Below are positions 29,791-59,508 of a stretch of 64,000 nt of DNA, one piece after another. The stretch comes from Methylocystis sp. Lineage in GTDB: Bacteria; Pseudomonadota; Alphaproteobacteria; Rhizobiales; Beijerinckiaceae. The first letter of the stretch is position 1. Every line of letters begins with the position of its first letter. The stretch lies in the NCBI GenBank assembly GCA_002929055.1, contig PERY01000001.1, positions 152,855 through 216,854 of the forward strand, written 5' to 3'. The notes below the pieces were generated by a model, which was given only the letters and a program-made list of their open reading frames with translations, searched no databases and was not told the origin of the DNA. The position numbers were made by a program, and so were the translations under genes.

Positions 29791-29864
29791 TGGAGCGGGT
29801 GAAGGGAATCGAACCCTCGTATTCAGCTTGGAAGGCTGCTGCTCTACCATTGAGCTACACCCGC
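29791..29864 (-). tRNA. tRNA-Gly (anticodon TCC)
   Basis: The minus strand folds into a full cloverleaf: acceptor GCGGGTG pairing with CACCCGC, D arm GCTCAATGGTAGAGC, anticodon stem CAGC/GCTG around loop CTTCCAA (anticodon TCC), T arm AGGGTTCGATTCCCT, and an encoded CCA end. 74 nt including CCA. Confidence 0.97.
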
Positions 29865-30507: not shown

Positions 30508-30915
30508 TTACTTCACGCGGCGGCGGCGCTGCTGGCCAAGGCCCATCTGCTTGGCGAGGTTGGAGCGTGCCTTGGCGTAATTGGGGGCGACCATCGGATA
30601 GTCGGCCGGCAGGCCCCACTTCTCGCGATATTCCTCGGGAGAAAGGCCGTATTGCGTGCGCAGATGGCGCTTCAGCGATTTGAATTTCTTGCCGTCTTCG
30701 AGGCAGATGATGAAATCGTTGGTGACCGAGCGCTTCACGGCGATGGCCGGCTTGGGCGGCTCCGCGGGAGCCGGAGCAACGTTGGATCCAACACGCAGCA
30801 GGGCATTGTAAACTTCGCTGATCAGCGCCGGCAGCTCTGCCGCGGGAACTGAATTGTTACTGACATATGCGGAGACGATGTCAGCGGCGAGCTCGATGTT
30901 GTTCGTTGCGTTCAT
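30508..30915 (-). CDS. mucR: MucR/Ros family transcriptional regulator with altered zinc finger
   Basis: A 135-residue protein ending in [35 protein letters not shown], the strongly conserved MucR C-terminus. The finger reads [21 protein letters not shown]. Compared with Ros ([20 protein letters not shown]), the second Cys is Asp and both trailing His positions are Gln and Tyr, so only one Cys and one His of the classic zinc set remain. Several MucR/Ml proteins lack the second Cys, and some work without zinc. MucR binds AT-rich promoter DNA and controls exopolysaccharide, motility and host-interaction genes; it often represses itself. It could regulate the glycan operons here. Confidence 0.95.
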
Positions 30916-31210
30916 GGGGCGCCTATTGCCTTATGTGGGACCCGGAAAAACTTTGTGGTTTGCGGAGCGTCGCCGCTCCGAAATAGCTCGCACAAAAACC
31001 TTTGTTCGAGTTGTTTCGTGAAACAGGCGATGATTTCCAATAGATTACCCTAGGCGGGTGAATACAGCAAGAATTTATCTTGCCTGTTTTGCTTTGCGCA
31101 GGATTTGACACAAATGATCCTTTGTTCAAACCGCTTTTCCCGGAAGCTCCCCGGCTGTATCCTTTCTCCGCCTGCCTCGCACGGCCAAATTCAGCAAAAC
31201 CGGAGCGACC
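30916..31210. promoter_or_regulatory. AT-rich divergent control region between mucR and the MDR oxidoreductase
   Basis: This 295-base region is much richer in A and T than its surroundings, as expected for a MucR target. It contains a hairpin CGGAGCG/CGCTCCG (30963-30980), a direct repeat CCTTTGTTC at 30999 and 31119, and a TTGACA hexamer at 31105. No well-placed -10 box is obvious. It should hold the promoters of both flanking genes and perhaps the mucR autoregulatory sites. Confidence 0.55.
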
Positions 31211-32197
31211 GTGACTTCATTCCGCGCTATCCGAATCGAGAAGAGTTCCGAAAACTATTCCACTGATTACGTCGACATGACTGACGGCGATTTGATGGCG
31301 GGCGACGTCGAGGTCGACGTCCTGTTTTCGGCGATCAACTACAAGGACGGCCTCGCTATTACTGGCAAGGGGCCGGTCGTGCGCCGCTTCCCGATGATTC
31401 CAGGCGTCGATCTCGCCGGGCGGGTGACCCGGTCGGAGCGGGCGGAGTTCGCCCCGGGGGACATCGTCGTCGCCACCGGTTGCGGGGTCGGCGAAGCCCA
31501 TTACGGGGGCTTTGCGCAGCGGGCGCGGCTTTCCGGCGACTGGCTGGTGAAACTGCCGGACGCGCTCAGCCCGGCGCGTGCGATGACGGTGGGCACAGCG
31601 GGATTGACCGCCATCTTCTGCGTGCTCGCCCTCGAGGCGCATGGGCTTTCGCCGGCGGCGGGCCTCGCGGTTGTGAGCGGCGCGTCGGGCGGCGTCGGCT
31701 CCTTCGCGGTCGCCCTTCTCGCCAAGGCCGGCTGGCGCGTCGCCGCGATCACGGGAAGCGCCCGGGAGGCGGACTATCTGCGCGCGATCGGCGCGGCCGA
31801 AATCCTCGCGCGGGAGGATTTTTCAGCGCCGGGCAAGGCCCTGCAGACGCAACGCTTCGCCGCCGGGATCGACACGGTGGGCGGCGTGACGCTCGCCAAC
31901 ATCCTCTCACAAACGCAGTTCGACGGCGCCGTCGCCGCTTGCGGCAATGTCGGCGGCATGGACCTGCCCGCGAGCGTCGCGCCCTTCATCCTGCGCGGCG
32001 TGGCGCTGCTCGGCGTGGAGAGCGTGCGGCCGCGGCTCGCCCTGCGCCGCGACGCCTGGGCGCGCATCGCAACGGACCTTGACCCGGAGATGATCGACGC
32101 CATGTGCGAGGTCATACCCTTCGATCAGGCGCTCGAGCGCTCGCGCGCCATCGTCACGGGCAAGATACGCGGGCGCGTCGTCATCGAAATGCCCTGA
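31211..32197 (+). CDS. MDR-family oxidoreductase, AcuI/YhdH (acrylyl-CoA reductase) type
   Basis: GTG start at 31211 following GGAGCGACC. The 328-residue protein carries AINYKDGLAITGKG and IPGVDLAGRV, both typical of the AcuI/YhdH branch of zinc-independent medium-chain reductases. The NADPH motif is VVSGASGGVGSFAVALLAK. AcuI reduces acryloyl-CoA to propionyl-CoA with NADPH, which detoxifies acrylate and serves 3-hydroxypropionate or DMSP metabolism. No acrylate or DMSP genes are nearby, so the physiological role is open. Divergent from mucR. Confidence 0.9.
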   Translation: MTSFRAIRIEKSSENYSTDYVDMTDGDLMAGDVEVDVLFSAINYKDGLAITGKGPVVRRFPMIPGVDLAGRVTRSERAEFAPGDIVVATGCGVGEAHYGGFAQRARLSGDWLVKLPDALSPARAMTVGTAGLTAIFCVLALEAHGLSPAAGLAVVSGASGGVGSFAVALLAKAGWRVAAITGSAREADYLRAIGAAEILAREDFSAPGKALQTQRFAAGIDTVGGVTLANILSQTQFDGAVAACGNVGGMDLPASVAPFILRGVALLGVESVRPRLALRRDAWARIATDLDPEMIDAMCEVIPFDQALERSRAIVTGKIRGRVVIEMP

Positions 32198-57478: not shown

Positions 57479-57642
57479 TCTCGTCAAGGCGCGCCGGCCA
57501 GTTGTCGCTGAGATATGCCGTTGATCTAGCGAACGGTGCCGAAAAGTGCTGGCGGAAAATGTTTGCTTCGACCCGAGGTCGCGCGCGCGCCGATTTAATG
57601 CTAAGGTTGAGATAGTTCTTTCGGGCTAGCTTGAGGAACGAC

Positions 57643-58326
57643 ATGTCAGACGAAACCCCTCATTGGGTAACAACTATACCTCGCTGGATATTCCTTTTTA
57701 CGGCGGTTGCATTCTCAGTGACGGCTGTAAGTTTTTTTGTAGCGATGCTCAGTTCATGGGCTGCCGGAGAGCCATTTACTCTAATGGGAAATCAATTCGG
57801 TTGGTCTCGAACACGTCCAGACGAAGTTGTGGTGAGTAAACCTGTTAGCCTGTTACAATGGCAGCAGCGAAGGTACGTAGCAGACTTAGCCCAAAGTTTT
57901 TCAAAGGACACGAAAGATTATACAGATGTTATTTATAAGTGTTTTCCAACCTTCGAAAGGAACGGAAGCTTCGTTTCAACAAACGTGATCAGTGAAGGCG
58001 ATGCAATATCAATTATCCAAAAAAACGATGAATTGCATAAATCAATTAGGAGATTGCTGAACTACTTTGAGGCGATCTCTATTGCATATCAAAACGGAGT
58101 TGCGGACGGCCCTATGTTTGAAAGCTCGTTCTTGCCCGTGCTAAAAATGTGGTATGCAAGGCTACATTTGTACATTAAGGTTGCTGATGAGCAGTGTAAG
58201 TGTAATTGGCAACCTTTCGAAGACGTTGCGATAAAATCTTGGGCTTCAAAAGAGCTTCCCCGGCCGAGTTCCAGTGTGGCTGTCTGTTACGGGGTAAACT
58301 CGCAGCTAAGAAAAAGAAAAGGCTAA
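57643..58326 (+). CDS. AT-rich membrane-anchored protein, DUF4760-like (tentative)
   Basis: ATG 57643 preceded by GAGGAACGAC gives 227 residues. One N-terminal membrane segment (IFLFTAVAFSVTAVSFFVAML) is followed by a helical cytoplasmic or periplasmic domain with SIRRLLNYFEAISIAYQNGVADG, which resembles DUF4760-type proteins. Base composition and codon choice differ sharply from all neighbours: many A/T-ending codons such as AAA, TTT and ATA, against the GC-ending codons elsewhere. This points to recent transfer. No integrase or repeats flank it. Function unknown. Confidence 0.8.
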   Translation: MSDETPHWVTTIPRWIFLFTAVAFSVTAVSFFVAMLSSWAAGEPFTLMGNQFGWSRTRPDEVVVSKPVSLLQWQQRRYVADLAQSFSKDTKDYTDVIYKCFPTFERNGSFVSTNVISEGDAISIIQKNDELHKSIRRLLNYFEAISIAYQNGVADGPMFESSFLPVLKMWYARLHLYIKVADEQCKCNWQPFEDVAIKSWASKELPRPSSSVAVCYGVNSQLRKRKG

Positions 58327-58365
58327 AAAATCGGATCGGCGGAGAACTCGCTAGCAGCGCGTATC

Positions 58366-59508
58366 TCAGCCCCACGGCCCTTTCTGCGGCGGGTCGAGCG
58401 GATGGCGTCCGTCCTGCGGCAGGAAGGAGGCTTCGCTCTCTTGCTGCGCCTGCGCCCATTCGGGCGCCTGCTCATCGATCGCCTGCCCGTCGACGCGCTG
58501 GGGCTCTTCATAAGCGATGGCCGCGTCCTGCCCGCCGGCGTATGCGATCAGCGTGGCGATGCGCTCGTCGACGGACGGATGCGTCGAGAACCAGCCGGAT
58601 TCCTGAATCCGCGCCGGGCTTTCGATGAAGAAGGCGTGCATGCGCGAGGGCATGGTCGGGATCACCGAATGCGCCTCGATCTTGCGCAGCGCCGAGATCA
58701 TGGCGTCGGGGTTCTTGGTCAGCTCCACCGCGCCCGCGTCGGCCAGATATTCGCGCGAGCGCGACAGGGCGAACCGGATCAGCACGGAGGCGCCCCAGCT
58801 CAGCGCGATGATGGCGAGCGCAATGATGATGGCGAGCCCCGCGCCGCCTTCCCGGCGATTGTCCTCGCGGCTCGACGGCCGATGCGGCGAGAAGCCGAAG
58901 GGGAAGTTCCAGCTGCGGAAAATCAGATCCGAGACGAAGGCGAAAATGCCGGCGAAGATCACCGCGATGACCATCAACTGGACGTCGCGGTTGCGGATGT
59001 GGGTCAGCTCATGGGCGAGCACGGCCTCTAGCTCCGGATCGGTCAGCTCGGTCAGCAGGCCGCGCGTGACCGCGACCTTGTATTGCCCTTCTTTCAGGCC
59101 CGAGGCGTAGGCGTTGAGCGCGTCGCTGTCGATGATCTGCAGCGCCGGGATCGGCACGCCGCGCGAGATGCAGAGATTTTCGAGGAGATTGTAGAGACGC
59201 GGCGCCTCGGTGCGGTCGATGCTGTGCGCGCCGGTGGCGAAATCGATCATCCTTTGGTGGAAGAGATAAGCGATGACGAACCACACGCCCGCCCCGGCGA
59301 CGCCGATCGGCCAGCCCTCCTTCAGGTCGCTGATCGCTCGGGCCGCGATCCAGTCGAAGGGCGCGCCCCGCGGCGCTCCCATCGCCTCGAACAGCAAGGC
59401 GAAGGAAAACATCAGCGCCAGCAGCAGGACCACGAAGCCGGCGAGCAGAAAGCCCGAGCGGAGCCGGTTGGCGCGGATGTGGGAATAGAGGCCGTAGGCT
59501 TTGAACAT
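58366..59508 (-). CDS. M48 family membrane metallopeptidase (HtpX-like)
   Basis: A 380-residue protein. Two N-terminal spans (RSGFLLAGFVVLLLALMFSFALLF and IGVAGAGVWFVIAYLFH), then the zinc site EAVLAHELTHIRNRD (His166, His170) and two further spans. The third ligand region is SRSREYLADAGAVELT. The tail after STHPSVDERIATL is acidic and low complexity. HtpX-type enzymes degrade misfolded membrane proteins. Paired with lemA upstream in the same direction, a common LemA-M48 arrangement, with a repeat between them. Confidence 0.93.
   Translation of the reverse strand: MFKAYGLYSHIRANRLRSGFLLAGFVVLLLALMFSFALLFEAMGAPRGAPFDWIAARAISDLKEGWPIGVAGAGVWFVIAYLFHQRMIDFATGAHSIDRTEAPRLYNLLENLCISRGVPIPALQIIDSDALNAYASGLKEGQYKVAVTRGLLTELTDPELEAVLAHELTHIRNRDVQLMVIAVIFAGIFAFVSDLIFRSWNFPFGFSPHRPSSREDNRREGGAGLAIIIALAIIALSWGASVLIRFALSRSREYLADAGAVELTKNPDAMISALRKIEAHSVIPTMPSRMHAFFIESPARIQESGWFSTHPSVDERIATLIAYAGGQDAAIAYEEPQRVDGQAIDEQAPEWAQAQQESEASFLPQDGRHPLDPPQKGPWG

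What the first reader, a model, noticed from the sequence alone, without database searches (positions are those of the whole stretch)
57480..58365. AT-rich islet with one membrane-protein gene
The composition drops abruptly from high GC to near balanced for about 700 bases, and codon use is foreign. There is no mobility gene, and both neighbours are ordinary. Such single-gene islets often carry phage-defence or stress genes.
Basis: partly seen in the sequence, partly recalled or inferred. Interest (0 to 1): 0.5.

Follow-up and report, generated by a model that had tools for sequence, protein, structure and literature searches.

The report
Foreign single-gene islet, DUF4760 membrane protein
A lone AT-rich gene for a membrane-anchored helical protein of an uncharacterised family (DUF4760) has been inserted between two ordinary genes of a methane-oxidising bacterium; relatives of the gene are typical cargo of temperate phages and anti-phage gene hotspots, so a phage-interference role is plausible but untested.

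Summary
57479-58365 is the most AT-rich stretch of the window and holds one gene, 57643-58326 (+): 227 aa, 43.6% GC (window 65.6%), GC3 42% (neighbours 83-88%), one N-terminal transmembrane helix, DUF4760 (PF15956, 42.7 bits, cut-off 25). It is absent from 36 congeners. In the sister species (htpX tree) the two flanking genes are only 17 nt apart, and the same slot holds other genes in other congeners, so this is a gain at a site of high gene turnover. The protein is an orphan with relatives only at family level. DUF4760 is sparse in the phylum (18 of 399 genomes), its genes are usually AT-richer than their surroundings (24 of 27), and some other members are single-gene islets too. In phages DUF4760 genes are cargo: in P2-like (pro)phages they sit between the portal and replication-endonuclease genes, a published anti-phage hotspot; in others beside the integrase. 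Some bacterial copies adjoin TIR or MmeI-type restriction genes. Best reading: a horizontally acquired membrane-anchored accessory gene that probably interferes with phage infection. Acquisition is shown; function is inferred, and no defence library matches it. New member of a known, uncharacterised family.

The parts
57479..58365 (.). AT-rich islet between two convergent core genes
   Evidence: composition; filled in the window, 17-nt gap in G010 and 34-nt gap in G004
57643..58326 (+). DUF4760 membrane protein gene, 227 aa
   Evidence: PF15956 42.7 bits, cut-off 25; profile match to other DUF4760 proteins E 4e-7; TM helix about residues 14-40
57633..57637 (+). GAGGA, likely ribosome-binding site
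   Evidence: read directly in the sequence, 5 nt before the ATG
57507..57532 (+). left arm of an imperfect inverted repeat at the islet borders (suggestive only)
   Evidence: the 12-mer GCTGAGATAYGC occurs only at the two borders in the 3.0-Mb genome, but the repeat score is reached by 2.4% of other window segments
58348..58370 (-). right arm of the same imperfect inverted repeat; overlaps the htpX stop codon
56594..57478 (+). upstream flank: alpha/beta-hydrolase (esterase) gene, conserved in congeners
58366..59508 (-). downstream flank: htpX, convergent, conserved in congeners

Best explanation
The islet is a gain of one accessory gene at a site of high gene turnover between a convergent esterase gene and htpX. 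The gene encodes a divergent DUF4760 protein: one N-terminal transmembrane helix followed by an all-helical domain that should lie in the cytoplasm. The family travels as cargo of temperate phages and of defence-like loci. The most likely role is interference with infecting phages from the inner face of the membrane, as a superinfection-exclusion or abortive-infection type effector. Shown: foreign composition, absence from congeners, empty site in the sister species, family membership, phage and hotspot contexts of the family. Inferred: topology, phage interference, mechanism.
For: Foreign composition. Absent from 36 congeners; 17-nt empty site in G010, the sister in an htpX tree (support 0.77), and different genes in the slot in other congeners. 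Pfam DUF4760. Family members in P2-like (pro)phages lie between portal and replication endonuclease, the anti-phage hotspot described in PMC9122126 and PMC9519451; beside the integrase in other phages; reversed among head genes in a Mu-like prophage. Bacterial members lie next to TIR, CAP12-type TIR or MmeI genes in 3 of 27 loci. 24 of 27 family genes are AT-richer than their flanks.
Against: No PADLOC model matches this protein and matches to other family members are weak. It does not match the phage family phrog_2284 and lacks several residues that the phage clade keeps. Most DUF4760 loci have no obvious defence neighbour, and neighbour counts had no matched control. No defence neighbour in this window. 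No experiment on any member was found.
Confidence: 0.5

Rival explanations
1. Acquired DUF4760 gene with no phage role: a membrane-bound regulator or other host-fitness cargo that merely rides on phages and islands.
For: Several family members stand alone among metabolic genes without defence neighbours (G063, G121, G494). No PADLOC match. Two family members with GC near their flanks sit in what look like resident loci (L089, L091).
Against: Position in the P2 anti-phage hotspot and next to TIR or restriction genes.
Confidence: 0.3
2. Inert passenger: a foreign gene recently inserted and now decaying, without function in this host.
For: Orphan protein that has lost part of the polar residues kept in the phage clade; the G121 copy has an in-frame stop, so such islets do decay.
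Against: The 227-codon frame is intact, has a plausible ribosome-binding site and still scores well above the Pfam cut-off.
Confidence: 0.15
3. Ancestral gene lost by the congeners, or an assembly artefact.
For: The genome is a 63-contig assembly, 89% complete; only one genome per species is held, so presence across strains is untested.
Against: It lies inside a 262-kb contig and both flanks are orthologous to a pair that is adjacent in congeners; many independent losses would be needed; composition is foreign.
Confidence: 0.05

Closest known systems
Pfam PF15956 (DUF4760)
   Same: Over the curated cut-off (42.7 against 25 bits); same layout of TM helix plus helical domain; LN..E and the late W kept.
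   Different: Match covers profile positions 49-140 of 141 only; N-terminal part is about 35 residues longer; several residues conserved in the phage clade are replaced.
phrog_2284 (DUF4760 proteins of temperate phages, e.g. P2-like phages at the gpA-gpQ hotspot)
   Same: Same Pfam family in annotation, same architecture and order of helices in the models.
   Different: This protein does not match phrog_2284 and is chromosomal, outside any prophage.
Small membrane-bound superinfection-exclusion and anti-phage cargo of temperate phages (P2 old/tin locus as the positional reference)
   Same: Family members occupy the same phage locus; accessory, single gene.
   Different: No sequence relation to any of these proteins was shown; phage exclusion is untested.

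Membership tests
DUF4760 (PF15956) | Score over the curated Pfam cut-off | tested here: met
   42.7 bits against 25
DUF4760 (PF15956) | N-terminal TM helix followed by helical domain with conserved LN..E | tested here: met
phrog_2284 (phage clade of DUF4760) | Profile match | tested here: not met
   no match at E up to 10, while all eight phage-borne and bacterial comparison members other than this protein match
Known anti-phage defence protein | Match to a PADLOC-DB model | tested here: not met
   best match E 0.027, chance level
Known anti-phage defence protein | Protection against phage when expressed | not testable with these tools
   needs plaque assays
Prophage, integrative element or transposon | Integrase, transposase or other phage genes in the islet or beside it | tested here: not met
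   single gene, ordinary flanks
Transposase-less element with terminal inverted repeats | Significant terminal inverted repeats and further copies | tested here: inconclusive
   12-mer found only at the two borders, but the repeat score is reached by 2.4% of other window segments and no further copy was found
Horizontally acquired single-gene islet | Foreign composition, sporadic presence and an empty site in close relatives | tested here: met

The most novel reading that the evidence does not exclude
DUF4760 is an unrecognised family of membrane-anchored anti-phage effectors, carried by temperate phages in the P2 gpA-gpQ hotspot and scattered as single-gene islets over bacterial chromosomes; this gene is a divergent chromosomal member.
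Probability: 0.4. Interest if true: 0.6.

Novelty: new member of a known kind. Interest (0 to 1): 0.33.

Why it matters
The gene alone is a routine genomic islet. The useful part is the family pattern it led to: a nearly unstudied membrane protein family that recurs as phage cargo in a proven anti-phage hotspot, in places next to TIR and restriction genes, and as lone foreign genes in chromosomes. That makes DUF4760 a concrete candidate for plaque assays in laboratory E. coli.

Tried and rejected
Close relatives of this protein: none in the plasmid and phage collections, IMG/VR or GTDB contigs, and only twilight matches in 398 genomes of the order (best 27% identity over 83 residues, E 6e-4). 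Sequence search of solved structures: only chance matches to interferon alpha. Fold searches of both models: nothing at E 0.001 or better in PDB; weak matches to plant EDS1 (E about 1) not used; best viral match is an unnamed protein at E 0.003. RNA element: only a chance Rfam match. Sigma-70 promoter and terminator scans: none found. Terminal inverted repeats: kept as suggestive only. PADLOC scan of 113 neighbour genes of 27 family loci gave restriction and methyltransferase matches, but the library holds broad families and there was no matched control; the PHROG scan of the same set was uninformative. L195 was left out of the alignments because its match is not in one frame. A first esterase query was in the wrong frame and was redone.

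Full report
Observation. The dip in GC at 57.5-58.4 kb is real and is the strongest in the window. The islet runs from the stop codon of an alpha/beta-hydrolase gene (57478) to the stop codon of a convergent htpX (58366). It holds one gene, 57643-58326, preceded by GAGGA. Its codon-position GC (46/42/42%) is unlike both neighbours (third position 84-88%). There is no tRNA, known RNA, integrase or transposase in it.

Host. The genome is an unnamed 3.0-Mb assembly in 63 contigs. Nine of 13 genomes searched in the genus carry the AmoA/PmoA family (PF02461), so the genus is methanotrophic; that it is Methylocystis or a close relative is my inference. The family was not found in this assembly itself, which is incomplete.

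Presence and absence. A protein search of 36 congeners and 24 further genomes of the order finds the gene only here. The flanking pair is recognisable in most congeners searched. In G010 the two genes are 17 nt apart and in G004 34 nt. In an htpX tree G010 is the sister of the window's genome (support 0.77). In ten other congeners the same slot holds two genes that I read by eye as a flavodoxin and a small flavodoxin-associated protein, in two a DsbA-like protein, in one a hydrolase, in one an AT-rich (38% GC) membrane-protein gene plus a TspO-like gene; in a few the two flanks are not linked or one was not found. The slot between the convergent genes is therefore a site of high gene turnover, and the simplest history for the islet is a gain in this lineage.

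Identity. The protein scores 42.7 bits against Pfam DUF4760 (cut-off 25) and aligns by profile to an independent set of DUF4760 proteins (E 4e-7). It has no closer relative in any collection searched. It has one TM helix (about residues 14-40) and a helical domain; its model is of medium confidence (pLDDT 67.5), and the model of a phage member is good (83.4) with the same order of helices. In the phage clade basic residues follow the TM helix, which by the positive-inside rule puts the domain in the cytoplasm.

The family. DUF4760 is sparse: over the cut-off in 10 of 289 genomes of the class and 18 of 399 of the phylum, and in none of 14 control genomes. In 24 of 27 other cases the gene is AT-richer than its flanks (median 6.8 points, Wilcoxon p 1e-5). 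Some are single foreign genes in ordinary neighbourhoods: between pyruvate dehydrogenase genes (G121, 28.8% GC against 52%, with one in-frame stop), between etf and dehydrogenase genes (G063), between uvrC-like and pgsA-like genes (G494) (neighbours read by eye). Others lie next to mobile or defence genes: a TIR-domain protein directly downstream (G707), a CAP12/Pycsar-type TIR protein two genes on (G709), an MmeI-type restriction enzyme directly upstream and DUF4365 downstream (G340), conjugation and methyltransferase genes (G624).

Phages. DUF4760 genes occur in sequenced temperate phages and in IMG/VR. In P2-like phages and prophages (Entero_P88, Shae_phiSM, a copy on an IncC plasmid, E. 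coli chromosomes) the gene lies between the portal and the replication-endonuclease genes. Two papers show that this locus is a hotspot of anti-phage systems: PMC9122126 places it between gpA and gpQ, where P2 carries old and tin, and PMC9519451 found four new defence systems there. Near-identical copies are in 288 of 5,426 E. coli genomes. In Acinetobacter and Alteromonas phages the gene is beside the integrase; in a Kingella Mu-like prophage it stands reversed among head genes. These are typical cargo positions. A full-text search finds the name DUF4760 in one paper only, in a table of a genomic island; supplementary tables could not be read, so the hotspot papers may list it there.

Mechanism. 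I commit to phage interference by a membrane-anchored cytoplasmic helical domain, at about 0.5. Shown: acquisition, family, architecture, and contexts of the family. Inferred: topology, target and phenotype. Against it stand the absence of any PADLOC match, the loss in this protein of several residues that the phage clade keeps, no match to phrog_2284, and the many DUF4760 genes without defence neighbours.

Borders. An imperfect inverted repeat, GCTGAGATAYGC..CTAGCGA, lies at 57507-57532 and 58348-58370. The 12-mer occurs nowhere else in the genome. The repeat scores better than 99.5% of shuffles but is equalled by 2.4% of other window segments, and the right arm overlaps the htpX stop codon, where other congeners also have small palindromes. 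I treat it as unproven.

Verdict. A real foreign single-gene islet: an ordinary kind of thing, with a family behind it that deserves a defence assay.

Noticed in passing
L113:5980-7359 and L198:4501-5879: In P2-like (pro)phages of E. coli the DUF4760 gene is followed, in one strain with a 4-nt overlap, by a 280-aa gene that matches the Csx27 model of PADLOC weakly (E 1.1e-5); a possible two-gene system in the gpA-gpQ anti-phage hotspot.
   Followed up: partly
L134:6429-7932, L136:6389-7831, L070:4623-9445: DUF4760 genes directly beside a TIR_2 protein, near a CAP12/Pycsar-type TIR protein, and at the end of an MmeI-type restriction gene followed by DUF4365.
   Followed up: partly
L032-L049, between the esterase gene and htpX: The esterase-htpX interval is a turnover site in the genus: empty in two species, flavodoxin pair in ten, DsbA-like in two, hydrolase in one, AT-rich gene plus TspO-like gene in one (contents read by eye).
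   Followed up: partly
L068:6722-7222: A very AT-rich (28.8% GC) DUF4760 gene with an in-frame stop sits between pyruvate dehydrogenase complex genes of another alphaproteobacterium.
   Followed up: no
window 30676-31360: Second-lowest GC stretch of the window (53.7%), about 0.8 kb from a tRNA-Gly gene at 29791-29864.
   Followed up: no
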